Of a DNA stretch of 64,000 nt, positions 813-57,609 are shown one piece after another. This stretch comes from a virus. Under the pieces are notes generated by a model, which was given only the letters and a program-made list of their open reading frames with translations, had not been told where the DNA came from and made no database searches. The DNA is taken from IMG/VR virus record IMGVR_UViG_3300035661_000043, positions 1 to 64,000 of that record, one strand, 5' to 3'. The first letter of the stretch is position 1, and every line of letters starts with the position of its first letter. The position numbers and the translations under genes are program-made.

Positions 813-1073
813 ATGTCTCTTCATGATGATCTACAGTTAATTAACACAAGGACGGCAGAGAAACTTGCTATTCCAAGAAAGATCAATGGTGTAAATTTTG
901 ATGGTACGATTGATATATCAATTTCAGGAGGTGGGACATCTGGTGACTCCACTTCAATTGCTGGTGTTCCAGTTTCAGTTGCTTCTTTAACTAATGGTGA
1001 TATACTATAGTACTCTGGTTAGAGTTGGGTCAATGTTGGCCAAGATAATATAACAGATGGTGGGAATTTCTAA
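813..1073 (+). CDS. Small virion/fibre-associated protein
   Basis: 86 codons with two TAG. Read as Ser they give a tail of the type LSYSGSSWVN, a motif common in phage fibre-like proteins. It stops at TAA overlapping the ATG of the next gene (TAATG), so the two are translationally coupled. It opens a block of seven tightly packed structural-looking genes inserted between gp13 and gp14. No enzyme motif is seen. Function is inferred from context and low-complexity Ser/Thr/Gly composition. Confidence 0.65.
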
Positions 1074-2473
1074 TGTCAAATACAGTAAGAATTAAAAGAC
1101 GTGCATAGGGTGGTGCTTCGGGCGCACCGGCTAGTTTGGCTAATGCTGAATTAGCCTACAACGAAACAGATGATGTACTCTACTATGGTAAAGGTACTGG
1201 CGGTAGCGGCGGTTCAGCAACAACAATAATACCAATTGGAGGACCGGGTGCGTTTGTAGGACTTACTGGTGCATAGACTATTGCAGGTGTAAAAACCTTC
1301 TCCTCTTCTCCAATTCTTCCTACACCTGCTACATCAGATAATTCCACTACTGCTGCGACAACTGCTTATGTTAAAGCACAGAATTATATAACAGGCAACC
1401 AGTAGATTACAGTATCTGGTGATGCAACTGGTTCTGGTACTACAGCGATCACTCTCACACTTGCTAACTCTGGTGTAACAGCTGGTACGTACAACAACTC
1501 TTCTACACAGACACAATCATTTACTGTTGATGCTAAGGGTAGAATTACTGCAACAGGTACACTGACTACTATTACTCCAGCTTGGTCTAGTATAACGTCT
1601 AAACCAACAACTATTTCCGGATACGGTATTACTGATGCTTATACCAAGACGGAAACGGATACATTGCTGCAAGGTCTTGATCCAAAGGCGTCCGTAAAAG
1701 TAACAACAACAGCCAATATCACACTGTCTGGCACACAAACGATCGATGGTGTCGCTGTGAGTGCTGGAGATAGAGTTTTGGTTAAGAACCAATCTACCCC
1801 TTCACAGAACGGTATCTATATTGTAGCGGCAGGTGCTTGGAGTCGTTCTGCTGATATGAATATCTGGTCAGAGTTCCCAGGTGCTTACATGTTTGTAGAG
1901 GAAGGTTCTACGCAGGCAGATTTTGCATTCGTGTGTACCTCTAATGCATCTGGTACACTAGAAACAACTTCAGTAGATTTTGTGCAATTCAACGGTGCAT
2001 CTGGTATCACTGCTGGTACAGGTATCGTTAAATCGGGTAACACAGTTTCAGTATCTGCAGAACTGGCTGGTTATCACAACAATGCGACAAACGGCATCAT
2101 CGCTAGAACTGCTGTCGGTACGATCGCAGCAAGAACCCTGGCAGTCTCCGGAACAGGTATTTCTATATAGAATGGAAATGGTGTTTCCGGTGACCCAACA
2201 TTCTCCCTATCTGCTGCACTTTCTACCGTCGGTGGTCTTACTCCCGCAGTAGACCAGTTAGCATACTACACAGGATCGGCAACTGCTGCTCTTACTACAT
2301 TAACAACATTTGCTAGATCTTTGTTGGGAAATACTGATGCATCTACAATGAGAACTACTCTGGGTCTTGGTACAATAGCAACACAATCAAGTTCAAGCAT
2401 AAATATTACCGGTGGTTCTATCACCGGTCTTACTTCATTCGATAACATTACTATCGACTGCGGCACATATTAA
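1073..2473 (+). CDS. Tail-fibre-like structural protein
   Basis: 466 residues with four TAG codons. The N-terminus reads RIKRRASGGASGAPASLANA with TAG as Ser, a start I recognise from T4-like cyanophage structural proteins. A central module (SGTQTIDGVAVSAGDRVLVK, then NGIYIV) is a repeated domain of phage fibre proteins, and the C-terminus is Ser/Thr/Gly-rich. The stretch LANSG to TPAWSSITSKP recurs in the gene at 4366, so these genes share modules. A role in host attachment or virion decoration is inference. Confidence 0.7.
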
Positions 2474-2497
2474 TTTTGAACTTGAGGATGCTATAGC

Positions 2498-2647
2498 ATG
2501 AAATATACTTTATCCGATCTTACCGAACAAGAACTAAACACAATTTTGAATTCATTGGCACAGTCACCGTATGTTCAAGTATTCCAGTTGATTGGTAAGA
2601 TTCAGCAACAGTATCAAGTACAGTCTCTAGATTCTAAAACAGAGTAA
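2498..2647 (+). CDS. Small hypothetical protein (49 aa)
   Basis: ATG after a weak GAGG, TAA stop, no TAG. The product is Gln-rich (QLIGKIQQQYQVQS) and probably helical. It sits between two fibre-like genes on the same strand with short gaps, so it is probably co-expressed with them and could be a fibre chaperone or assembly factor. I recognise no family. Confidence 0.55.
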   Translation: MKYTLSDLTEQELNTILNSLAQSPYVQVFQLIGKIQQQYQVQSLDSKTE

Positions 2648-2662
2648 TACTCTGCACAATGA

Positions 2663-4366
2663 ATGGCAAACACCCTACTATTAAAGCGATAGTCAACGGC
2701 TAGTGCCGCACCTACTACAGGACAACTAGCACTAGGTGAACTCGCAGTCAATAGTAGGGATGGTACTTTATTTCTAAAACGAAATAATGGTACTACTGAC
2801 TAGATCGTAAAAGTCTGGACAGATCAATAGCTGATAAACACCAGTCAGCTCATCAATAACTCAAATTTCATCACAAGCACTCAAGCCACAACAACAATCG
2901 GTTCTGGTGTAACAGGTCCTATCTTCCTGAACATTTAGAACTCAGGTGTCGGAAATTCTTCAGGTTTCAACTTCTTGAAGTCTAATGATGCTGCTGGTAT
3001 ATCTGTAACAGAATTCTCAGATGATTCTACTCTGTATGAATTCTTCATGTCTGATAATCCAGATGGAGGAGATTCATTTAGTTGGAGATGGACTGACTGG
3101 CAGGGTGCCAACGGATTATGGAACCCAATGTTGATTGGTGGCAGATGTACGACAGTACTGTCATCCACAATTTCAATGAATGGTGTCCTGACGCAGTCAA
3201 TGTCTCGTTGGTATACGACTAGAAACACAACTGCTGCTAATGCTGCACAGAATATTGCCGCTTACAACACACCTGCTTTCTTGAAGATTGAAGGCACAGG
3301 CACTGTGACAATCACAACTCTGGATATCAATGGATATTCAGCCTGGAGTGGTGTAGTTTTCAGCATTCGGTTCATATCCAGTACTCAATTTGAGTGGGGG
3401 TATGGTGGTCCGAATTTCACTGCTGTCCAGACCTTAGATCTTGTAGAAGGTCCTATTACACTTTCAAATGGCGTAGTTGTTACATTTTCCTAGACAACAG
3501 GTGCTGTTACAGGTGACCGGTTCCAGTGCAGAATTTGGTACATAACGAACAATGATCTGCAGACTACACAGTTCAGAGGGAATATCTATCCAGACGGGTA
3601 GAATACAAGAACTAGCGGTACTGCTTCTAGATACTGGTCAAATACATACTCTCAAATCTTCACATCTAGTGCTACTACGGGTACCGCACCACTTTCTATT
3701 GCATCAACTACACTAGTCAACAATCTAAACGCGGATTTGTTGGACGGTCAGCATGCAAGTTCATTCCAACCAGCATTAGTCTCTGGGACTAATATCAAAA
3801 CCGTAAACGGTATTTCTGTTTTAGGCACAGGAGATATCAACACATCTGGTGCTTCTGCATATGAAAAGCAAATATTCAGTGCTCCTACCGCGGGACAAAC
3901 ATCATTCACAATCTCAGGCGGTTATCCTGCTAATAAGATTGAATTCTTCAGAAACGGGGTGAAGTTAGTAGCGGGTCTGGATTATGATGCAACATCTGGG
4001 GCTTAGATCACACTTGTTGGATTCTCTGCAGCTGCAGGTGATGTGTATGAGGCGTACTGGTTTGATTCGATTACTACATAGACACAAGTTCAAGTAAGAG
4101 ATGGTGGGTAGGATTCTGGCATGATCATGGACTCTTTCCCGGGTGAAGTGTGGCATATGAAAGCGGGGAATAGTCTCAGACTTCCGGCTAATCCAGCTAT
4201 TGGCAGTTTTGTTAAGATGCACAAATCATCTGGTTTCTAGATGTCTATCCTGCGAAATGGTTAGAATATCATGGGGTTGCAGGAAGACATGACAGTCAAT
4301 GTATACACTGCAGTATAGATAGACTTTATATATGTAAGTGCTACTTATGGGTGGGCAGTTAACTGA
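2663..4366 (+). CDS. Tail-fibre-like structural protein, TAG-rich
   Basis: 567 residues with about twelve in-frame TAG, among the most TAG-dense genes here; read as stops it falls into small pieces. With Ser the N-terminus is LLLKRSSTASAAPTTGQLAL, like the 1073 gene. It contains the DADLLDGQ-type module (NADLLDGQHASSF) followed by SGTNIKTVNGISVLGTGDI, shared with the 4366 and 6874 genes. The stop TGA overlaps the next ATG. A likely adhesin or fibre subunit, without homology proof. Confidence 0.7.
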
Positions 4367-5505
4367 TGACTAAAGCAATACAAATATCGTAGGCAGCAAT
4401 TGCTAATGGTGTAGCAACTCTTGATGCAAATACTATACTAACACCCACTCAATTTCCAGCAGTATCAGGCGATGTTTCTGTTGCTGCCGGTTCTACAACG
4501 GCGACTCTTGCTAATTCTGGTGTTGTTGCAGGAACATATAATGGTATATCAACATAGGTAACACCTTTCACAGTTGATGCTAAAGGTAGAATTACTAGTG
4601 CGGGGACTGCAGTCATAGTCACCCCTGCATGGTCTAGTATCACATCTAAACCAACTACATTAGCTGGATATGGTATCATTGACGCTCAACTCTCTTCTGA
4701 TGCTGTAACAAAGTCTGCCACTGGTCTAGGACAAACTGGGGGCGGTCTAGGGTTAGATATAACAACGAATACTGCTGCTGAATGGGCTGCACTTCCAGTC
4801 GGTTATTCGCGGATGTTTGGTTCAGCATCACAACGAGGTGGTGATGGCACAGAAGGTGCGCCTGATATCAATTATGGATACTTCAGAAAGATAGCAAACC
4901 GTGATACAGGAGACGGTTGGGTTGGTATGTGGTATTCTTACTAGCAGCCGGGTAATATCTGGTATGGAGCAACAGTTACATCTGCTGCTACCGCGACGTG
5001 GTATAAAGTATGGACTCAGGCGAATGATGGTGATGGTTCTGGCATGGATGCAGACTTGTTGGACGGTCAGCAGGGGTCATTTTACATGGCGGCATCCATG
5101 TCAGATGTCAACAACACTGCAGGAAAAGTAGTTCTCAGAGACACAGACTAGTCAGTCCAAGTTGGTGATGTCAAAATTAATGCCCTTGTCACACTTAAGC
5201 CGTACACTATTACTACAACAAGCATATAGGAAACTATTCTGGCTACATTTAGTACTGGTTTATATGGTTGCATCAAAGTTGTTCTTTCTGCTACAACAGG
5301 AACAGAAAGACACGTGACCGAATGTCTGATTACATATAATTCAACTGATGCATTCATGACAGAATATGGAACGATGTGGACTGGTGCAGCAAAACAATTT
5401 AATCTGTCCGTTGATATCACAACAGGTGGTGTCAGATTGAAGACAACTTCAACAGCTGCAACATCTACAGTTTATAGATTCATAACAACTCTCTTAGTAC
5501 CATGA
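4366..5505 (+). CDS. Tail-fibre-like structural protein
   Basis: 379 residues with five TAG. It carries a VDAKGRIT...TPAWSSITSKPTT module like the 1073 protein and a MDADLLDGQQGSFY module like the 2663 and 6874 proteins, so the block has grown by module duplication and shuffling. Stop and start overlap both neighbours (TGATG upstream, ATGA downstream). Beta-rich, Ser/Thr-rich composition fits a virion surface protein. Confidence 0.68.
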
Positions 5506-11497: not shown

Positions 11498-12844
11498 ATG
11501 CTACAAAATAATCAATCGCTGATAGATAATGATGAATGGGAAGTTCTTACTCCATCTGGGTGGCAAGACTTTTCTGGTATACTGATAACAGAAAATCAAG
11601 ATACCATCACTTTAGACTCAGGATTAACTTGCACAGAAAATCACAAAGTATTGAGAGCCGGAGTGTGGGTAGAAGCAAAATAGATAAATCACACAAAGAA
11701 TGTTAATCAAACCGTGTATGACTTAACTGATGTGACGAATGGTCATGCATATTATACAAACTCGGATATTAGTCATAATTGCAATTTCCTAGCACTGGAT
11801 GAATTTGCATTTATTCACCCCAATGTAGCAGAAGATTTCTTCGCATCTGTTTATCCTACTATTTCATCAGGTAAAACTTCAAAATTGATGATCATTAGTA
11901 CACCTAATGGTATGAATTTGTTCTATAAGATGTGGATGGATGCACTATCTGGGTCAAATGGTTTCATGCCTGTAAAGGCGATTTGGTCTGATATTCCTTC
12001 TAGAGATCAAAAATGGGCAGATGAACAGAAAGCAGTTCTGGGAGAAGTTAAGTTCTAGCAAGAATGTGAGTGTAACTTTATTGGTGCTAGCAATACACTT
12101 ATTTCTGGCAATAAACTGAGAACTATCCCATTTGAAAAGCCAATTGCTATATCACCAACTCTTCGTGTGTACGATGAACCCAAGCCCGGAAATTCATATG
12201 TAATGAATGTGGACACTGCAAGAGGGACAGGTAATGATTATTCTTCATTTACTATTATCAATGTCACATAGTTGCCATATAAAGTTGACGCTGTATATGC
12301 AGACAATGAAGTTAGCCCACTGCTTTTCCCAGGTATTATATTGAATCTGGCTAGAAAATACATTAATGCATCAGTATTAATAGAAACCAATGATATTGGA
12401 GAAAGTATAGCATCTTCTCTGTATTATGATTATGAATATGAAGAAGTTATTATGTCAGACAGCAAAGGTGGAATGTAGGCATTTGGTGGAGAGAAACCAG
12501 GGCTGAGAACTACTAAAAAGACAAAATCAGTAGGATGTTCTGTCCTCAAGACATTGATTGAAAATGATCAATTAATCATTCGCGACTCCGAGATTCTATA
12601 TGAGTTATCAAATTTTGCTCTAAAGGGATCATCATACGAGGCGGAGAACGGACATGATGATAGAGTAATGACACTCGTTCTTTTTGCATACCTTACTACT
12701 CAGAGTGTTATGACCGAATTGACAAGTTAGTAGGCAAAAGCAAGAATTATTGAACTGAGACAGAAACAAACAGAAGATGCAATGATGCCGGCAGGATTCT
12801 TTTCTGATGGGACAGAATCTGAATCAGATACATTTCATTTCTAA
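11498..12844 (+). CDS. 17: Terminase gp17, fragment 3: second intein C-part plus nuclease half
   Basis: The first about 94 residues are the second intein's C-part, ending in TNSDISHN, followed by extein Cys and the Walker B region LALDEFAF. Then come IISTPNGMN (T4 TTPNG), the nuclease strand VDTARGTGNDYS, DNEVSPLLFP and the C-terminal TTKKTKSVGCS block. Several TAG codons are read as Ser. The split leaves 108 nt between fragments 2 and 3 without a gene. Together fragments 1-3 encode the packaging ATPase/nuclease. Confidence 0.87.
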
Positions 12845-15739: not shown

Positions 15740-17902
15740 ATGTCTAATCCAATATTCAATTTTTTCGGGTTCTAGATCAAACGATCTGAAGAGGAGAAAC
15801 AGCTTCCTAAATCAGTTGTTGCTCCAAATCTAGCAGATGGTTCTATTGTTATTAATCAGAACTTGGGAACTGGTATTCTCGGAGACTCTTATACTCTTGC
15901 ATTTGACCCAGACGGTCAGATCACAAATGAGATCGATCTCGTTCGTAGATATAGAGAATTGTGCAGATATCCAGAAGTAGCAGAAGCTATTGAAGATATC
16001 GTTAACGAAGCAGTGATTATCGAAGGTGAAGATAAACCTGTTGAAATCAATCTTGAGTATCTTAAGATCTCAGATTCAATCAAGAAAAAGATCACAGAAG
16101 AATTTGCCAAGATTCTTTCACTGATGAACTTCAATGAAGAAGGGTATGATCTATTTGAAAGATGGTATGTGGATGGGAAGATCTTTTTCCATATATTACT
16201 GGATGAAAATCATTCAAATGGTATCAAAGAGCTAAGATTAATTGACCCACGTAAGATCAAGAAGATCAAGAATGTGATCAAAGAGAAATTAGCAAGTGGT
16301 GTAGAGATTGTCAGGGAAGTACAAGAATATTACATATACAATGACAAGGGTATTGCAGGCGGCACTAGTCAGGGTGTAAGATTAAGTGTTGATTCTGTTG
16401 TGTACTGCCATTCAGGTCTGATTGATTCACAAACTGGATTAGTTCAATCATATTTGCATAAAGCAATCAAACCTGCTAACCAATTAAAAATGTTGGAAGA
16501 AGCGGTTATTATCTACAGATATACTCGTGCACCAGAGCGTAGGGTATTCTATATTGATGTTGGAAATTTACCAAAAGGTAAAGCTGAGCAATACGTCAGT
16601 GATATGATGAATAAGTTCAAGAACAAGTTATCATATGATGCTGTTACTGGGGAATTGGCAGATTCTAAGAGACACTTGTGTTTGGATATGAGCACACAAG
16701 TACCATTGCTTGATGGCAGAACACTGTCTATTTCCGAGATTGCTGCAGAGATGGATCAATCAGATAAACCTCTATGGGCATATTCATGTGATCCAGTGAC
16801 TGGCAAATTTGTGCCGGGTAAAATTACCTGGGCCGGTGTATCTAGACCAAATGCACAAGTCATGCGTATTACTCTTGATAATGGAAAAACCATTACTTGC
16901 ACCCCAGATCACAAATTTCCAGTTTGGGACAAGGGATTCGTAAAAGCTGAAGATCTATATATTGGCGAATCAATGATCCCGCATTATACTCGTTGGAAGG
17001 AAATTGCTAAGGGTTCTTCCAAGAATTACGAACAAATTTTCGAGAATGATACTGGAGAATGGAAATTCACACATCAAGCAGTATCCGATTGGAAAGATTG
17101 TATTACATCGCGCCGTTCATCTACATCATGTGTTTCTTCTGATAACAGTGCAGATAGACAAATTGATTCTCTAATGTTCCGTAACCATAAAATTGCAAAA
17201 ATTGAGTGGTTAGAAGAAACAATGGACACTGGATGTCTGACTATTGACGGAGATGAAGAATTCCACAATTATCATACATTCGCTCTATCTGCCGGAATTT
17301 ACACCCAGAACTAGATGATGGAAGATTTCTGGATGCCTAGGCGCGGAGATAAATCAACAGAAATCACGACACTTCCAGGGGGTCAGGGTCTCGGTCAGTT
17401 GGATGATTTGGATTATTTCAAGGATAAACTATATCGTTCTTTAAATGTACCTAAATCTAGATTCGTTCCAGATAGTGGTTTCTCTATTGGTAGATCAGAT
17501 ACTATTTCTAGGGATGAAGTAAAATTTGCTAAATTTGTTGGCAAATTGCGCAACAAATTCGGAAATATCTTTTTAGATATATTGCGCGTTCAATTGATTT
17601 CTAAGGGTATTTTCTCTAGTAAAGATTGGGAACAATTTAAAGAGAAGATTAAAGTCATTTACGCTAAAGATAACTTCTTTGCCGAATTAAAAGAAAATGA
17701 AGTTCTTACTACTAGACTTTAGACTGCATTGCAATTGGATCCATTTGTCGGCAAATATGTAAGCAAAGAATACATCCAAAGAAAAGTACTAAGATTCACA
17801 GATGATGAAATAAAAGAAATAAATACACAAATGGAAGCCGAGATCAAATCTGGTGATATTACTGACCCAGTAGCAATGATGCAAGAACCACCTCAGGCAT
17901 AA
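15740..17902 (+). CDS. 20: Portal protein gp20 with in-frame intein
   Basis: 720 codons, of which 211 are an intein. Extein landmarks of T4-like portals: FFGFSIKRSEEE (TAG as Ser), RRYRELCRYPEVAEAIEDIV, RWYVDGKIFFHI, ELRLIDPRKIKKIK, PERRVFYIDVGNLPKGKAEQ, then MMEDFWMPRR, TTLPGG and LNVPKSR. Removing the intein gives RHL-Ser-MMEDFW, matching the HMSM(L)EDFW of relatives; the Ser is TAG 17312-17314. The portal is the dodecameric vertex through which DNA is packaged. Confidence 0.92.
16679..17311 (+). other. Portal intein (contiguous, 211 aa)
   Basis: Begins with Cys (CLDMSTQVPLLDG, block A) after RHL. It has a block-B-like TCTPDHKFPVW and ends FHNYHTFALSAGIYTQN, with the terminal Asn preceded by Gln instead of the usual His. 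The +1 extein residue is the TAG codon. No LAGLIDADG or HNH nuclease motif is evident in the central part, so it is probably a mini-intein. Splicing requires Cys/Ser/Thr at +1, which holds if TAG is serine. Confidence 0.88.
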
Positions 17903-31079: not shown

Positions 31080-32786
31080 ATGATTATCTTCGAAAGTATA
31101 AGAATCAAGAACTTCCTCAGTTACGGCAATGCATGGACTGAATTAAATCTCAGACAGGGAAAAGTACTAGTTGCAGGTGCCAATGGGGCAGGAAAATCTA
31201 CTATGGTAACTGATGCTCTGTAGTATGCACTATTCGGTAAGCCATTTCGTAAGATCAATATCCCACAATTGATCAACTCTATCAACCAGAAGGATTGCCA
31301 GGTAGAACTAGATTTCTAGATTGGCAAGGATTCTTACCAAATTAAGAGAGGGATGAAACCGGGGAAGTTCGAAGTATACAAAAATTCAGAATTGATAAAA
31401 CAGGAAGCAGCAACAAAGGATTATCAATAGTATCTTGAGCAGCAAGTGCTGAAGATAAATCATAAGACGTTTGTACAGATTCTTGTTCTTGGTTCTGCTG
31501 TTTTTACTCCTTTTATGCAATTAGCAGCCGGTCATAGAAGAAATGTGATTGAAGATCTTCTAGATATCAATGTTTTCAGCACTATGCTTAGATTGCTTAA
31601 GGAAAAGATTCAAGTCAATAAAGAAGAAACTCTAATCATCAATGGTAAACTAGAATCAGCTAAGAAGGAATAGATTGCACAGAAAAGACTCATTGAAACA
31701 TTGAGTTCTAAGAGTGATGATCAATTGGTAATTCTGTATTCTGAACTCACATAGTTACAGAACGATATAGTATCGGCAAAATAGAAGAGAAATGATGTAC
31801 ACAAATTACTTGAATCTATCCAGATTCCTGACTTTATGTCAGAAGAATTAGAAGATATAAGAGTTGAATTCAATACACTGAAAAAGTAGATTCAATCAGA
31901 TATCAAGAAGATAGATTCAGTCTCCGCTATTCATTCATGCCCAACATGTTTACAGTCTGTAACTGATGATCACAAAGTAAGAATCAAGACTGAACTAAAA
32001 TATAAGTATGATCAACAGAAACCGAAGCTAGATCAGTATTCTAAAAAAGTTGAAGAACTGACTACACAGAAAGAATTGTTTGATACAGCAAAGATCGAAC
32101 AGCAGAAAATGTTGAAAGAACTTGCTGCGATAGACCAGAAAATAATTTCCCTTGAAGAACAAGAATCTTCCACACGAGTGAAGATCGAGACACAGAAACA
32201 AAGTTCTTCTGCAGACTTGGAAAAAGAAAAAGATCGACTCAGAGATTTAGCACAATCTGCTCTTATGTTGATTGAACGCAAGAACGAATTGATCACAGAG
32301 AAATAGATTCAAGAAGTCTCTCTAGGTCTTCTGAAGGACACAGGTATTAAGGCTAGTATCATCAAAGAATACCTGCCGATTCTCAATAAGATGATCAACA
32401 AGTATCTATCTGAGTTCGACTTTTTCATTAATTTTGTATTGGATGAAAATTTCAATGAACAGCTGTTGAGCAGAGGAAGAGATTCGGCTTAGTACTTCTC
32501 TCTATCAGAGGGTGAAAAGAAGCGAGTAGATGTTGCAATTCTTCTCGCATTCAGGCATATTGCTTCTCTAAAGAATTCTGCAAAGATCAATTTGCTTGTT
32601 CTTGATGAACTTGATTCTGGGTTGGATCACGACTCTCGTTTGAAGTTGCTAGAATTGATCCAGACTATGGATTCCGATGTCTGGATGGTCTCCCACTCTA
32701 TACAGAACACTGAACTTGAACAGCAGTTCGATAAGGTGACTTTTGTAATGAAGAAGGGAGATTTTTCAGAAATGATCATCAAGTGA
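31080..32786 (+). CDS. 46: Recombination ATPase gp46 (Rad50/SbcC-like)
   Basis: 568 residues with nine TAG, including DALSYALFGKPFRK and ELDFSIGK, sites where relatives commonly have small residues or Ser. ABC-ATPase landmarks: GANGAGKST (Walker A), the zinc-hook CPTC in the coiled coil, SLSEGEKKRVD (signature), LLVLDELDSGLD (Walker B) and VSHS. Partner of gp47. Confidence 0.93.
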
Positions 32787-37082: not shown

Positions 37083-37667
37083 ATGTATTTGTATGACTTA
37101 GAGACACTTGGTGTAAATGAAACAGCTGTAGTACTTTCTATAGGTTGCATTTATATCAGTTCACCAGAACCGTGTTCATATCATGATTTGATGAAGAATT
37201 CTTTCTTCGTGAAATTGGATGCTAAACATCAAATCCAAAAACTGGGTCGACAAGTTACTTCCTCTACCGTAGATTGGTGGGCAAAACAAAGCACCGCTGC
37301 TAAGCATACATCATATATCCCAAGTAAGAATGATGTGACACCTGACGTGGCGCTTCAGCAACTACGGAAGTTTGTCTATGACAACACCGGGCAATCTCGA
37401 GTCAAGTGCTATACTCGTGGATCCATGGATGTTATTGTTTCAGAGCATTTGGCTAAGCAAGTCGACATGAAACTTCCTTGGGTGTATAATAACTTCAGAG
37501 ATATTCGTACTGCTATCGATATTCTATACACACTCAGTAAAGATGGGTATGTGGCAGTAGACCAGACAAAATGCTTTGGTTACACAGATGACATGACTAT
37601 TGCGCACAACCCAGTGCACGACTGTGCTCGCGATGCTGCAATGCTACTTTTTGGAAAGACTGAATGA
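37083..37667 (+). CDS. dexA: 3'-5' exonuclease DexA
   Basis: 194 residues. DEDDh-type exonuclease: YDLETLG (DxE), STVDWWAKQS, RDIRTAIDIL and HNPVHDCARDA (HxxxxxD) match T4 DexA (STIEWWKNQS, RDIRTRIEAL, HDSIHDCAKD). Likely degrades host DNA and trims ends. The stop overlaps the polymerase ATG. Confidence 0.88.
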   Translation: MYLYDLETLGVNETAVVLSIGCIYISSPEPCSYHDLMKNSFFVKLDAKHQIQKLGRQVTSSTVDWWAKQSTAAKHTSYIPSKNDVTPDVALQQLRKFVYDNTGQSRVKCYTRGSMDVIVSEHLAKQVDMKLPWVYNNFRDIRTAIDILYTLSKDGYVAVDQTKCFGYTDDMTIAHNPVHDCARDAAMLLFGKTE

Positions 37668-39169
37668 CAAGATTTTATACAAACGTAGTAAGACTCGGGA
37701 ACAATATCTGTGTCCGAGAGCAAACAGAAACTGGACCTAGCAAGTTTAAAACTCGTTACCAGCCAACATTATTTCTAAAGACCGACAAGGAGTCAAAGTT
37801 TAAGACTCTGTACGGAGATTTTGCTAAACCCGTGCAACAAGACTCGATGTCAGAAGCACGAGAGTTCATCAAGAAATATGAAGGTGTACGTGGGGTAGAA
37901 TTGTTCGGTCAGCATAACTGGGTTCTTCAGTACATTAATGAGACATATTCTGGATCAGTTAACTTTGACCCAAAACTGATTTCTGCTTGGTCTTTAGATA
38001 TAGAAACGCTATTGTTTGAAGATGCAGAAGGAAAGATTACTGGCTTCCCGAATGCAGAGACAGGTGATTGTGAAATCACTCTTATCACAATTCAATGTCT
38101 GCAGAGCAAACAGTGCTTCACATTTGGCTCACGCGAGTATAAAGGTGAAAAAGTTCTTGATAGCAGGTACATGAACTGTGGATCTGAAAGGGAAATGCTT
38201 AAGCAGTTCATACAATTTTGGCAACTCAAATCAGTAGAAGTGATCACTGGATGGAACATCGAGCGGTTTGATATTCCGTACATTGTGAATCGTGTAAAAG
38301 TAGTTCTCGGAGAAGAATGGGCCAAGAAGTTATCACCGTGGGAATCAGTTGAAGTTATTAAGAAACGTGTCTCCGGTGGGTTTGGTGGAGATGAAGAAAT
38401 CATCTGTAATATTGCTGGTGTGTCTATTCTAGACTATATGGCTCTGTACAAGAAATTTGTGTTTGTAAAACATGAATCTTACTCGTTAGGGCATATTGCA
38501 CAGGAAGAACTTGGTGAGACCAAATTGGACCACTCGGAGTATAAGAACTTCAATGAGTTCTACTGGAAGGGGTTTGATGCAAAGTATGTTGACTATAACA
38601 TCCGAGATACGCAACTTGTTGCTCGTCTTGAAGATAAATTGAAACTTATTGAGTTAGTCTATACTCTGGCATATTTGGCAAAAATCAACTTTACAGATGT
38701 TTTCAGTCCTGTAAAGATGTGGGATTCTATTCTCCACAACAGGCTGTTTGGTGAAAATACGGTTGTGCCACTGAAGGAACACAATCCTGATGGTGACAAG
38801 CACATCGAAGGTGCTTATGTAAAGGACCCATCAGTTGGTATGCATGAATGGGTTATCTCATTAGATGCTACAAGCTTGTATCCATCCATCATGATGACAC
38901 TGAATATCAGCCCAGAAACATATCGAGGTATTGACAAAGAATACAATGTTGATTCTTTGTTGGCTGGGAAAATGAAGTTGGATCCACCTCAAAATCAAGC
39001 ATGGGGACCGAATGGTTCCAAGTTTGAAATTACTACACGCGGTGTTATCCCAAAGATTGTAGAAGAAATGATGGCAGATAGGAAATCTTCTAAAAAGAAA
39101 ATGCTTAATAGGACTCAGGATCTGGAACACATCAAGACAGAAATCACCAGGCGTGGATTGAAAGTGTAA
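37664..39169 (+). CDS. 43: DNA polymerase gp43, fragment 1 (N-terminal, exonuclease, palm start)
   Basis: 501 residues, no TAG. Family B polymerase: exonuclease motif WSLDIETL, GWNIERFDIPYI, YNIRDTQLVARL; palm motif A as SLDATSLYPSIMM. It stops at TAA after ITRRGLKV, in the fingers region. The rest continues in the gene at 39340. The 170-nt gap holds no gene or intron core that I recognise. Fission here recalls the split gp43A/B of some Aeromonas phages. Confidence 0.92.
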   Translation: MTRFYTNVVRLGNNICVREQTETGPSKFKTRYQPTLFLKTDKESKFKTLYGDFAKPVQQDSMSEAREFIKKYEGVRGVELFGQHNWVLQYINETYSGSVNFDPKLISAWSLDIETLLFEDAEGKITGFPNAETGDCEITLITIQCLQSKQCFTFGSREYKGEKVLDSRYMNCGSEREMLKQFIQFWQLKSVEVITGWNIERFDIPYIVNRVKVVLGEEWAKKLSPWESVEVIKKRVSGGFGGDEEIICNIAGVSILDYMALYKKFVFVKHESYSLGHIAQEELGETKLDHSEYKNFNEFYWKGFDAKYVDYNIRDTQLVARLEDKLKLIELVYTLAYLAKINFTDVFSPVKMWDSILHNRLFGENTVVPLKEHNPDGDKHIEGAYVKDPSVGMHEWVISLDATSLYPSIMMTLNISPETYRGIDKEYNVDSLLAGKMKLDPPQNQAWGPNGSKFEITTRGVIPKIVEEMMADRKSSKKKMLNRTQDLEHIKTEITRRGLKV

Positions 39170-39339
39170 GATCAAAAAGTTTCCGACTATTGATTTAGCT
39201 GGGACTTTTGTATATTACCAAATACACGTTCACTTTTCTTCATTCCCACAAACGGGAAGTAATTTTTCTTCGATATCAACAATTTTCAACCTTTACTATA
39301 TCACCATATAGTATATTTTATTAGAACAGGACCTCATAT

Positions 39340-39984
39340 ATGGATCTTTCTAAACTTTCCGATTCCGAATTGTTAAAACTCTACAATAAAGCAGAAGAGG
39401 AAATCTCCGCTCTTGATAACTTACAAATGGCACTCAAGATCTCTTTAAATTCACTTTACGGTGGAATTGGAAATCAAGGGTTCCGTTTCTTCAACTCTAA
39501 TGTTGCAGAGACAATTACATTGACCGGTCAGTATGTTCTTCGGTCTATTGAGCAAAGCATCGATGATAAACTGAATAAAGTATTCAAGACAGAGGGTCAC
39601 AAGTACCTGATCTATATCGACACTGATTCTGTCGTCGGAGATACAAAAATTTTAGTTAACGGCACTGAAACAACAATTGCAGATTATTATGATTCTAAGA
39701 CGGAGTTCATCAAAAGAGATGAATTTAATAAAGACTATGTTAAAAAATGTGATTCAGATTACACACCTACTGTGAATCCAAATACACAGGTAATGGAAAA
39801 TAAATCTGTTTCATATGTTATGAAACATAGAGTAAAAAAGAGAATGTATAAAATTACTGTTGGTGGAAAAGAAGTAATTTGTACGAATGATCACTCAATT
39901 ATTGTACGCAGGAATAGTCTCATTCTTTCCGTTATTCCCTCAGACATTCTGAAGACTGATGAGTTAATACATATTAAGCACTGA
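39340..39984 (+). CDS. 43: DNA polymerase gp43, fragment 2 with split-intein N-part
   Basis: Own ATG with AGGACC upstream. MDLSKLSDSELLKLYNKAEE, then ALKISLNSLYGGIGN (motif B) and YIDTD. From the next Ser an intein begins: SVVGDTKILVNGT (block A), KITVGGKEVICTNDHSIIV (block B), and it ends at TGA after about 115 intein residues. The catalytic motif C (YIDTDS) is interrupted between D and S. Trans-splicing with the 40044 gene is needed. Confidence 0.9.
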   Translation: MDLSKLSDSELLKLYNKAEEEISALDNLQMALKISLNSLYGGIGNQGFRFFNSNVAETITLTGQYVLRSIEQSIDDKLNKVFKTEGHKYLIYIDTDSVVGDTKILVNGTETTIADYYDSKTEFIKRDEFNKDYVKKCDSDYTPTVNPNTQVMENKSVSYVMKHRVKKRMYKITVGGKEVICTNDHSIIVRRNSLILSVIPSDILKTDELIHIKH

Positions 39985-40043
39985 ATTTGTATGAACTAAT
40001 ACATGACTAAAGATCGTGATTTAATTATAGAAAGATTAAAAAA

Positions 40044-40997
40044 ATGCAATTAGAGTTCACAACTGATTTTCAGATTGAAGATTTAGGTGAGATCGAAGAA
40101 GATGTTTATGATATTGAAACAGAAGATAATCATAATTTTTTCGGCAACGGTGTTTTAGTACACAACAGTTGTTACATCAATGTCGCCCCAGTTGTACAGA
40201 AATATCTATCAGATATTCCCGATAAGTCTGAGATTATTAAACGATTAGAAAAATTGGCAGTTGATATTATTCAAAAGAATGTCAATGATATTGTGAATGA
40301 TGTCTGTAAGCAAATGAATGTCTACGAGAACAAACTATCATTTAAATTAGAGGTATGTGCAGATAAGGCAATCTGGTTAGCAAAGAAAAAATATGTAGTA
40401 CGTGCATATTCTTCTGAGGGTGTTACATACTCAAAACCAAAATATAAAACGATTGGTTTGGAACTCGTCCGTTCGTCTACTCCAATGTTTATCCGTAAGA
40501 AGTTGAAGGATGTTCTCCCATTGGTGTTTGACACAGATCAAAGCACAATTCAGAAATTTTTATTAGAAACTCGTAAAGAGTTTGATCAATTGTCGGTGCA
40601 AGAAATTGCATTTCCAAGATCTGCTAACAATTTAGAGGAATATTCCGATAGTCAAAATATCTACAAAAAGGGTGCTGGTGTGTCTACACCAATACATGCC
40701 CGCGCAAGTTTGTTGTATAATGATCTAATACGGAAGAAAAATCTTCAAGGGCAGTTTCCAATTATTGTTTCTGGTGCGAAGATCAAATTTGTGTATCTAA
40801 AACTACCAAATACTCTAAGAGAGAATGTCATTGCTTTCCCTGCTGATGAGACTCTTCCTATTGAATTTGACCTACACCAGAAGGTTGACAGAGATATTCA
40901 ATGGGACAAAACGATGATTGCTTCTACACAGATCATTCTAGATTCAATTGGTTGGTCAGCTATCGAACAGTCAAGTTTAGATGACTTTTTTGGTTAA
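40044..40997 (+). CDS. 43: DNA polymerase gp43, fragment 3 with split-intein C-part
   Basis: The first 41 residues are a classical split-intein C-part, ending EEDVYDIETEDNHNFFGNG then VLVHN; the next residue, Ser, restores TDS-CYINV. The polymerase thumb follows, and the C-terminus ends SSLDDFFG, a clamp-binding peptide like the T4 gp43 tail. Only 59 nt separate it from fragment 2. No endonuclease gene lies between them. Confidence 0.9.
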   Translation: MQLEFTTDFQIEDLGEIEEDVYDIETEDNHNFFGNGVLVHNSCYINVAPVVQKYLSDIPDKSEIIKRLEKLAVDIIQKNVNDIVNDVCKQMNVYENKLSFKLEVCADKAIWLAKKKYVVRAYSSEGVTYSKPKYKTIGLELVRSSTPMFIRKKLKDVLPLVFDTDQSTIQKFLLETRKEFDQLSVQEIAFPRSANNLEEYSDSQNIYKKGAGVSTPIHARASLLYNDLIRKKNLQGQFPIIVSGAKIKFVYLKLPNTLRENVIAFPADETLPIEFDLHQKVDRDIQWDKTMIASTQIILDSIGWSAIEQSSLDDFFG

Positions 40998-42720: not shown

Positions 42721-42814
42721 TTTGTTGCTCATATAAGCCTTTAGTTGGTTGAGTAAAGTCATCGGGAACGCCAATTCCGCGGGTGACACCTATTCATAAT
42801 TGTGGAGTTTAGTA

Positions 42815-44257
42815 ATGCAAATTGAGTCAGTGATTATATCGAGTCTTTTGATTAGTGAGGACTACGCCAGAAAGGTAGTTCCTCACCTTGAAAAAGAATA
42901 TTTCGCAGAAAGAGTTGATGCTCTCATTTACGATGAAATCAATACTTTCTTCTTGAAATTCAATGTGCTTCCTACAAAGGATGTACTGCGTGTGCAAATT
43001 ACAGACAAGTCAGGTATTTCTAATTCTGATGCCGAAGACGCTCTTGCTAGGATACAAGGTCTTTCAACCGAGCCGAAAAATCTAGATTGGCTAATAGAAA
43101 AGACTGAAGCATTCTGCAGAGATCGTGCTCTGTACAATGCTATCATGAAATCTATCACCATCATCGACGGCAAAGATCAGAAACACTAGCGGGAAGCAAT
43201 CCCTAGTATTCTTCAAGAAGCATTGGGGATTTCTTTTAACACTGCGGTTGGTCACTAGTATCTTGATGATGCAGAAAAACGGTTTGATTTTTATACTCGT
43301 GTTGAATCTAAGATCGTCATGGATATTGAGATGTTCAATAAGATCACAAATGGCGGACTGAGCAGAAAAACTCTAAACATCTTATTAGCTCAATCTGGTG
43401 GTGGTAAATCATTGGTGATGTCGCACATGGCCGCAGGATGTTTACGAGATGGATTAAATGTACTCTATATCTCTATGGAGATGTCCGAAGAAAAGATCGC
43501 AGAACGTATCGATGCCAACTTACTTGATGTTGAAGTTGACAAGATCAAAGATATTGGTAAGGATATCTTCTGCACAAAAATTTCTAATCTTGCAGCTAAG
43601 ACTCACGGAAGATTGTTTATCAAGGAGTATCCATCCGGTGCAGCACACACAGGTCATTTCCGCGGTCTGTTAGAAGAACTGAAAACTAAGCAAGATTTTA
43701 CCCCTGACATTATCTTCATTGATTACCTTGGCATCTGTGCTTCATCTAGGGTGAAGATGGGAGGGTCAGTTAACTCTTATGCTTACCTGAAATAGATAGC
43801 AGAAGAACTTCGTGCATTTGCCACAGAGAATGATGTGCCTGTCGTGACTGCAGGTCAAGTGAATCGTGGTGGGTACAACACCACAGATTTAGACATGACT
43901 GACACATCAGAAAGTTTAGGTATTGCTATGACCGCAGATGTGATGCTAGGTATTGTTCGAACTGAAGAACTCGATGATATGAATCAGTTGATGATGGTAC
44001 AACTGAAAAATAGATATTAGGATCCCACTATCAATAAAAGATTTACTGTCGGTCTAAATCGCGCTAAGATGAAGTTATATGATCTGGAAGGGATGGCAAA
44101 TTCCGGTTTCACACCAGATGCAAAAAATAAAACATATGCACCAAAAATTGCATAGAACACCAGAGAAGACACACCGGTATCAGAAGATGTTATAGAATAG
44201 TTACCGGTTGCAGGTATTAAATCTAAAACAGTCAACACACAAGGATTCGCGTTTTGA
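42815..44257 (+). CDS. 41: Replicative helicase gp41 (DnaB-like)
   Basis: 480 residues with six TAG, e.g. YLKSIAEELRAFA and LKNRYSDPT, sites where relatives have A/S and N/S. RecA-fold motifs: LLAQSGGGKSLVMSHMAAG (Walker A), VLYISMEMSEEKIAERIDA, DIIFIDYLGI (Walker B), GQVNR. TGGAG precedes the ATG. A hexameric fork helicase; the stop overlaps a TTG start of the next gene. Confidence 0.92.
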
Positions 44258-50035: not shown

Positions 50036-50111
50036 GGGACTATAGTTTAATGGTTAAAACATCACCCCTTTAAGGTGTAAGCTCTCGGTTCGAATCCGAG
50101 TAGTCCTACCA
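50036..50111 (+). tRNA. tRNA-Lys(UUU)
   Basis: Acceptor GGGACTA/TAGTCCT, A73, CCA; anticodon stem CACC/GGTG with loop CCTTTAA (C33); canonical T-arm. Confidence 0.8.
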
Positions 50112-53205: not shown

Positions 53206-53224
53206 ATTATGTGCGATATCTCTA

Positions 53225-53672
53225 TCGCACATCAGAATGACTGTATGGATCTTCGGATCTGTGAAGTTGAAAGAAATGTGTTCAGGAAGCGAGTTCGAGT
53301 CTCGCCAGCTCCACCAGAAGTATATCATCTGATGCATTCTGTGTGCTGTATATATTGCAAGTATTCAGTATACTTCTGATGGGGCTGTATTGGTTTCGAC
53401 TGGGCAATGAGTATGGAGATGGACAGTTTGGCAACGCAGAAGCCATTATGATTGGGTCTTCCCGGTTGAAGAAGCAAACAAAAGTAAAAGCAAACGCTGA
53501 TACATTCCTGATGGCGGCTTGATCGCCCAGTGAGGATTCCTTGGGTGTTCCTTATTACCAAAACACCCATCCTAATATACGGAGAGTGGACCTGCAGGGT
53601 GCAGGCGCTGTTTGCTAAACAGTTGGTGTCAGGAATGGCATTCCGGTCGGGACGGACTCTCTCCTCCAAAAT
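53225..53672 (+). ncRNA. ssrA: Circularly permuted tmRNA
   Basis: The acceptor piece comes first: T-arm GCGAG-TTCGAGT-CTCGC, then CAGCTCC-A-CCA ending at 53316. After a 64-nt spacer with its own 9-bp stem, the coding piece begins at 53381 with GGGGCTG, which pairs with CAGCTCC, followed by TATTGGTTTCGAC. The tag frame starts at GCA 53490 and reads ANADTFLMAA, stop TGA. This is the two-piece layout of alpha-, some beta-proteobacteria and cyanobacteria. Outer limits are approximate. Confidence 0.85.
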
Positions 53673-54632: not shown

Positions 54633-54896
54633 GCAAATTTAGCTCAATGGTTAGAGCAGCGGACTCATGAAAAATTGTGCACCTAGGTAGGGATGCTTAG
54701 TGTGAATGTTGTCAAATTCGAAGAAACCTAAGTCAGAAATGATATGGTAACCTCGAGCCAAGCCTGAGAAATTAGGTGCTGTGTAGAGACTAGACGGCAA
54801 CCATCTAGAACAGATGAAGGTATAGTCCAGGGAGTGGCGAAAGTCACACAAACCAGAATCCGTTGGTTACAGGTTCGAGTCCTGTAATTTGCACCA
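54633..54896 (+). tRNA. tRNA-Ile2(CAU) interrupted by a group I intron
   Basis: Exons 54633-54668 and 54857-54896. Spliced, the tRNA is flawless: acceptor GCAAATT/AATTTGC, anticodon stem GCGGA/TCCGT, loop CTCATAA, T-arm ACAGG-TTCGAGT-CCTGT, ACCA. The 5' exon ends in U and the intron ends in G, as group I splicing demands. The insertion site (CAU|AA) equals that of the Azoarcus tRNA-Ile(CAU) intron, so Ile2 (lysidine-modified) is more likely than Met. Confidence 0.9.
54669..54856 (+). ncRNA. Group I intron, IC3, Azoarcus-like (188 nt)
   Basis: Core elements in order: GTCAAATTCGAAGAAACC (P3/J3-4/P4), TAACCTCGAGCCAAGCCTGA (P6-P5'), GTGTAGAGACTAGACGGC (P8/P3'/P7), GATGAAGGTATAGTCC (P7'), then GGGAGTGGCGAAAGTCAC (P9 with GAAA loop) and ACAAACCAG. 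I recall nearly the same strings in the Azoarcus ribozyme. No endonuclease inside. Confidence 0.9.
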
Positions 54897-57519: not shown

Positions 57520-57609
57520 GGAAGTTTGGCAGAGTGGTTTATTGCCGCGGACTCTAAATCCGCTGAATCAGAGATGGTTCCACGAGTTCGAATCTCGTAA
57601 CTTCCTCCA
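57520..57609 (+). tRNA. Amber-decoding tRNA-Ser(CUA)
   Basis: Class II tRNA, 90 nt. Acceptor GGAAGTT/AACTTCC perfect, U73, CCA. Ser-type D-arm (TTGGCAGAGTGGTTTATTGC); anticodon stem GCGGA/TCCGC, loop CTCTAAA with anticodon CTA at 57554-57556; variable arm GAATC-AGAGAT-GGTTC; T-arm ACGAG-TTCGAAT-CTCGT. E. coli tRNA-Ser(UGA) has the same GGAAGT start and D-arm style. This tRNA explains the serine reading of TAG in the window. Confidence 0.92.

What the first reader, a model, noticed from the sequence alone, without database searches (positions are those of the whole stretch)
37664..40997. DNA polymerase in three genes: fission plus canonical split intein
Fragment 1 ends in the fingers without any intein; fragment 2 starts with its own ATG and Shine-Dalgarno. 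Fragments 2 and 3 are joined by a split intein at YIDTD|S with a 41-residue C-part, the DnaE/gp41-1 style, unlike the atypical inteins of terminase. So two different splitting mechanisms act on one replicative enzyme.
Basis: partly seen in the sequence, partly recalled or inferred. Interest (0 to 1): 0.8.

Follow-up and report, generated by a model that had tools for sequence, protein, structure and literature searches.

The report
Three-gene phage DNA polymerase, split-intein joined
This virus of bacteria makes its main DNA-copying enzyme from three separate genes, two of which are probably stitched into one chain by a self-splicing protein tag while the third simply clips on; the arrangement is real, but it was already on record in Aeromonas and Tenacibaculum phages, so this is a compact new example rather than a new kind of system.

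Summary
A T4-type PolB DNA polymerase (gp43) lies in three + strand ORFs: 37664-39169, 39340-39984 and 40044-40997. The gene breaks first in the fingers tip, with no intein. It breaks again at motif C, IYIDTD|S, by a split intein of 118 + 41 residues. This belongs to the Ser1/Ser+1 PolB group: it matches the Aes123 PolB1 intein, which trans-splices in vitro (PDB 9hth), and it keeps every catalytic motif. Recoding, frameshift and an intron are poor explanations. The stops that break the gene are TAA and TGA, no slippery site or intron was found, and a 94%-identical relative (L002) carries the same polymerase uninterrupted. The combination is not new. Aeromonas phage Aes508 and Tenacibaculum phage PTm1 have gp43A | gp43B-N-intein | C-intein-gp43B, and several viral contigs repeat it. 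What is particular here is compactness: no homing endonuclease remains in either gap (170 and 60 nt). Two leads: the DNA around both breaks diverges from L002 more than the rest of the gene, which suggests one exchanged block; and broken first fragments in several lineages end in a [R/K]RG[I/L] tail. In passing, the genome appears to read TAG as an amino acid.

The parts
37664..39169 (+). gp43A: 3'-5' exonuclease domain, palm with motif A (SLDATSLYPS), first fingers helix; ends ...IKTEITRRGLKV, stop TAA
   Evidence: exo motif DIET and motif A read directly; 94% identical to the uninterrupted polymerase of L002
39170..39339 (+). 170-nt gap between gp43A and gp43B-1: no homing endonuclease ORF, no Rfam match; one terminator-like hairpin at 39243-39258; AGGA ribosome-binding-like site before the ATG
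39340..39627 (+). gp43B-1 extein: second fingers helix, motif B (NSLYG), palm up to motif C (IYIDTD)
39628..39984 (+). N-intein, 118 aa: Ser1, NX motif KH (66-67), N3/block B TNDH (86-89); stop TGA
   Evidence: 44-45% identity to Aes508 and CP21 N-inteins
40044..40166 (+). C-intein, 41 aa: block F VYDIE, block G NGVLVHN, followed by Ser+1
40167..40997 (+). gp43B-2 extein: rest of palm, thumb, C-terminal tail SLDDFFG (clamp-binding-like end, by recall of T4)

Best explanation
A T4-type replicative PolB (gp43) is encoded in three pieces. gp43A (exonuclease, palm motif A, first fingers helix) and gp43B associate without a covalent bond through the two fingers helices and the palm, as gp43A/gp43B of Aeromonas phage 25 do. 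gp43B is itself made in two pieces: a Ser1/Ser+1 split intein of the Aes123 PolB1 kind trans-splices f2 and f3 at IYIDTD|S, which rejoins motif C with the rest of the palm and the thumb, so polymerase activity should require splicing. Both breaks are most likely relics of mobile elements that repeatedly land in gene 43; the endonucleases that sit in the gaps of relatives are absent here. Shown: ORFs, homology, motifs, an uninterrupted close relative, relatives with the same layout. Inferred: splicing, association, loss of endonucleases.
For: Homology of all parts. Complete intein motif set: Ser1, the NX Lys-His described for Ser1 inteins in PMC10189870, TNDH, VYDIE, HN|S. Uninterrupted relative L002. 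Purifying selection in every piece: protein identity 95/86/96% against DNA identity 84/74/86% for f1, f2 extein and most of f3. Same architecture in Aes508 and PTm1. Aes123 PolB1 trans-splices in vitro (PMC11923092). 43A and 43B of phage 25 co-purify and are active (PMC2988022). Split intein at the same motif in about 54 distinct loci by hand count: 36 with a 0.6-1.6 kb gap of endonuclease size, 10 including the window under 150 nt.
Against: No direct evidence of splicing or assembly. The record is a 79.8 kb fragment, so an intact gp43 elsewhere in the genome cannot be ruled out. Even the natural Aes123 intein splices only about 30% of its precursor in vitro (PMC11923092). AlphaFold for f2 alone is weak (mean pLDDT 62.8; intein part about 64-84).
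Confidence: 0.9

Rival explanations
1. Recoding or frameshifting: with TAG read as sense, f1 and f2 would be joined by readthrough or a -1 frameshift, giving two polypeptides instead of three.
For: The genome does appear to read TAG as sense; f2's frame is open from 39109 under that code and overlaps the end of f1; a tRNA with anticodon TTA (TAA-reading) is present.
Against: The stops are TAA (f1) and TGA (f2), not TAG, and f1-f3 hold no internal TAG. Read-through of f1's TAA ends after 7 further codons at TGA. No XXXYYYZ heptamer in the required frame in 39060-39166. The spacer read in f2's frame does not look like polymerase and has no counterpart in L002. f1's tail ends in the same [R/K]RG tail as broken fragments elsewhere.
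Confidence: 0.04
2. An RNA intron joins 39169 to 39340, as an intron does within gp43B of Aeromonas phage 25.
For: Group I introns occur in gene 43 of relatives (phage 25, Aes508) and one lies elsewhere in this window at 54657-54849.
Against: No group I or II match between 38900 and 40400 even at relaxed E; fold z-score 0.24; gap of only 170 nt; the known gene 43 intron in Aes508 sits after NSLYGA, which is uninterrupted here.
Confidence: 0.02
3. The locus is a decayed, non-functional gp43 and another polymerase does the work.
For: The record is incomplete.
Against: All catalytic and intein motifs kept; synonymous change dominates against L002 in every piece; no other gp43 in the record.
Confidence: 0.04

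Closest known systems
Aeromonas phage Aes508 gene 43 (JN377894): gp43A / gp43B-1 / gp43B-2
   Same: Same three coding pieces, same fingers-tip fission, same YIDTD|S split intein; IntN 44% and IntC region 61% identical
   Different: Aes508 has a Seg-like GIY-YIG endonuclease in the first gap, a group I intron in gp43B-1 and a VSR-domain endonuclease in the intein gap; the window has none of these, and no match to either endonuclease was found in its 79.8 kb record (an empty result without a positive control)
Tenacibaculum phage PTm1 polymerase (AP019524)
   Same: Fission plus split intein at YADTD|S
   Different: Two ORFs in the first gap and a VSR endonuclease in the second; distant polymerase
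Aes123 PolB1 split intein (PDB 9hth)
   Same: Ser1/Ser+1, canonical split position, same insertion site; matches f2 at 1.1e-28 and f3 at 1.1e-10
   Different: Aes123 is cysteine-less; the window's N-intein has two non-junction Cys
Aeromonas phages 44RR2.8t and 25 gp43A/gp43B
   Same: Fission in the same fingers-tip loop; phage 25 halves co-purify and are active (PMC2988022)
   Different: No intein
Pseudomonas phage MIJ3 PolB split intein; Nanoarchaeum equitans Pol split intein
   Same: Naturally split inteins in PolB (PMC6892783; Neq named in PMC10189870)
   Different: No fingers fission reported in what was read; MIJ3 has an HNH endonuclease between the halves

Membership tests
T4-type PolB (gp43) | Homology to T4/RB69 gp43 over exonuclease, palm, fingers and thumb | tested here: met
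T4-type PolB (gp43) | Catalytic motifs: exo DIET, motif A DxxSLYPS, motif B NSLYG, motif C DTDS | tested here: met
   read directly; motif C only after splicing
Class 1 split intein, Ser1/Ser+1 PolB group | Ser1; N3 TxxH; penultimate His and terminal Asn; Ser+1 | tested here: met
Class 1 split intein, Ser1/Ser+1 PolB group | NX motif: His preceded by Arg/Lys (PMC10189870) | tested here: met
   K66-H67, His invariant; motif defined; identified by motif, not by structure
Class 1 split intein, Ser1/Ser+1 PolB group | Canonical split at the endonuclease position (about 100 + 40 aa) | tested here: met
   118 + 41 aa; matches 9hth 1-119 and 130-171
Class 1 split intein, Ser1/Ser+1 PolB group | Protein trans-splicing activity | not testable with these tools
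   needs expression
Fractured gene (split intein with an endonuclease gene between the halves) | Free-standing homing endonuclease in the gap | tested here: not met
   60-nt gap; so a split intein, not a complete fractured-gene arrangement
gp43A/gp43B bipartite polymerase | Break in the fingers tip, each part with its own start and stop | tested here: met
   start of f2 likely, not proven
gp43A/gp43B bipartite polymerase | The parts assemble into an active enzyme | not testable with these tools
   shown for phage 25 in the literature only

The most novel reading that the evidence does not exclude
The fingers-tip fission is a transferable module: a piece of gene 43 that carries a specialised gp43A tail ([R/K]RG[I/L]...) and a gp43B head (LSxxEL...), moves between phages by gene conversion with or without the intein, and whose tail and head form a docking interface that stands in for the lost peptide bond.
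Probability: 0.2. Interest if true: 0.5.

Novelty: new member of a known kind. Interest (0 to 1): 0.3.

Why it matters
It is a compact, endonuclease-free form of a known three-part polymerase, next to a near relative with the whole gene, so gain and loss of both interruptions can be studied in one lineage. It also offers a natural Ser1 split intein with two non-junction cysteines. It does not change what is known about how split polymerases or inteins work.

Tried and rejected
Stop-codon recoding and frameshift: the stops are of the wrong kind and there is no slippery heptamer. Intron: none. Promoter-like sites were no more frequent than in shuffles; of four terminator-like sites (0.8 expected) only one, weak, lies in the f1-f2 gap. 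An 11-nt direct repeat 39176-39186/39352-39362 (KVSD/KLSD, each in its own frame) could be a trace of the break, but by my own estimate about one such repeat is expected by chance in that stretch. AlphaFold of f2 gave a weak model, so no fold search was run. Aes508-type endonucleases were not found in the record, but that search had no positive control.

Full report
Observation. Three + strand ORFs encode consecutive parts of one T4-type DNA polymerase: f1 37664-39169, f2 39340-39984, f3 40044-40997. Against solved structures f1 covers T4 gp43 1-500, f2 4-107 covers RB69 531-635, and f3 42-298 covers RB69 624-883, so together they make a full enzyme. The first break falls in the loop between the two fingers helices; the second falls inside motif C, directly after the aspartate of IYIDTD. 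L001, a separate IMG/VR contig of the same virus, has no difference from the window in 37664-40997.

The intein. f2 residues 97-214 and f3 residues 1-41 match the two ends of the Aes123 PolB1 intein structure 9hth (E 1.1e-28 and 1.1e-10). The catalytic set is complete: Ser1, Lys-His of the NX motif, TNDH, VYDIE, His-Asn, Ser+1. The NX His is a feature of Ser1 inteins (PMC10189870). Aes123 PolB1 was found in polymerase genes of T4-like phages of Aeromonas salmonicida and trans-splices in vitro, though at about 30% efficiency in its natural form (PMC11923092).

The fission. f1 ends ...IKTEITRRGLKV and f2 begins MDLSKLSDSELLKLY. Aeromonas phages 44RR2.8t, 25 and Aes508 are broken in the same loop. 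For phage 25 the review PMC2988022 reports that 43A and 43B co-purify and have polymerase activity, and that 44RR is split by an untranslated intercistronic sequence. The window's gap is likewise 170 nt without an ORF or a known RNA family.

The uninterrupted relative. L002 (IMGVR 3300048672_000620) has the same polymerase, 94% identical, in one uninterrupted ORF through both sites. Its fingers tip is shorter. Codons 516-637 of the joined window polymerase (f2 extein and the first 40 codons of the f3 extein) differ from L002 at 26% of bases against 15% elsewhere (Fisher p 2e-6; third positions of codons with the same amino acid 55% against 39%, p 0.003). This fits one block around both breaks having been exchanged with a sister lineage, in one direction or the other; it cannot tell gain in the window from loss in L002. 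The test assumes a uniform rate, and the block was chosen after seeing the windowed identities, so the p-values overstate it.

Distribution. A scan with the N-intein profile gave relatives in many viral contigs. In a hand-made list of 54 loci judged distinct, IntN and IntC are separated by 600-1600 nt in 36, by 150-600 in 8, and by under 150 in 10 including the window. Fission together with a split intein is seen in Aes508, PTm1 and several contigs (L199, L205, L220, L229, L232, L246, L247, L255); in L205 and L220 the stop of gp43A overlaps the start of gp43B. In some other loci a short upstream ORF reflects an intron instead. L032, L044/L045 and L062 have the fission without an intein. On a quick tree of 70 polymerases the fission label needs 13 changes, at least 8 of them forced by well-supported branches: it was gained, lost or transferred repeatedly. 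14 of 27 broken fragments end in [RKS][RK]G against 2 of 43 whole polymerases with it in the loop; in 8 independent pairs the tail goes with fission in about 5 and against it in about 0 (median sign-test p 0.06). The pattern was written after seeing the tails and two broken rows (L196, L260) were scored on a truncated stretch, so this is a lead only.

Rivals. The genome appears to read TAG as sense: gp46 (31080-32786, 9 TAG) and the DnaB-like helicase (42800-44257, 6 TAG) match their families over nearly the whole ORF when TAG is read through, and a tRNA with anticodon CTA is present. That does not explain gp43, whose breaks end in TAA and TGA. A frameshift would need a slippery site that is absent, and an intron finds no support.

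Mechanism (inferred). The f2 and f3 precursors associate through the intein halves and splice, closing motif C; f1 docks on the product. Unspliced f2 carries the motif C aspartates but lacks the remaining palm and the thumb, so activity before splicing is unlikely.

Novelty. Aes508 is annotated in the database with exactly gp43A, gp43B-1 with N-intein and gp43B-2 with C-intein, and PTm1 similarly. The window adds a new, compact member without endonucleases. Interest 0.3.

Noticed in passing
window 31080-32786, 42800-44257, 1073-5505, 11498-12844, 15740-17902: TAG appears to be a sense codon: read with TAG=Q these become long ORFs with 3-12 in-frame TAG, several with strong family matches (gp46 phrog_77 1.8e-138, helicase phrog_19 7e-114, portal phrog_213 2e-185). 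The residue (Q) is a guess.
   Followed up: partly
window 57520-57609 and 50036-50111: tRNA genes with anticodons CTA (called Pyl by ARAGORN) and TTA, i.e. able to read TAG and TAA.
   Followed up: no
window 53224-53613: A permuted (two-piece) tmRNA gene in a phage genome (Rfam RF04321, 94.7 bits; ARAGORN tag ANADTFLMAA).
   Followed up: no
window 54657-54849: Group I intron (Rfam RF00028, 66.4 bits) between tRNA genes.
   Followed up: no
L002 3463-5382: In the relative with whole gp43, uvsX is interrupted by intein halves around a homing-endonuclease-like ORF (3834-4688) that holds 7 in-frame TAG and ends in TAA; the window's uvsX is whole.
   Followed up: partly
L086-L163 family (e.g. L091, L097, L116, L120): A distant group of PolB genes is also broken in the fingers, with other tail sequences.
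   Followed up: no
L307: A whole polymerase with a long fingers tip...IKTELSKRGTTKLANLMDAELKNELEKLY..., that looks like an unbroken version of the window's f1 tail plus f2 head.
   Followed up: no
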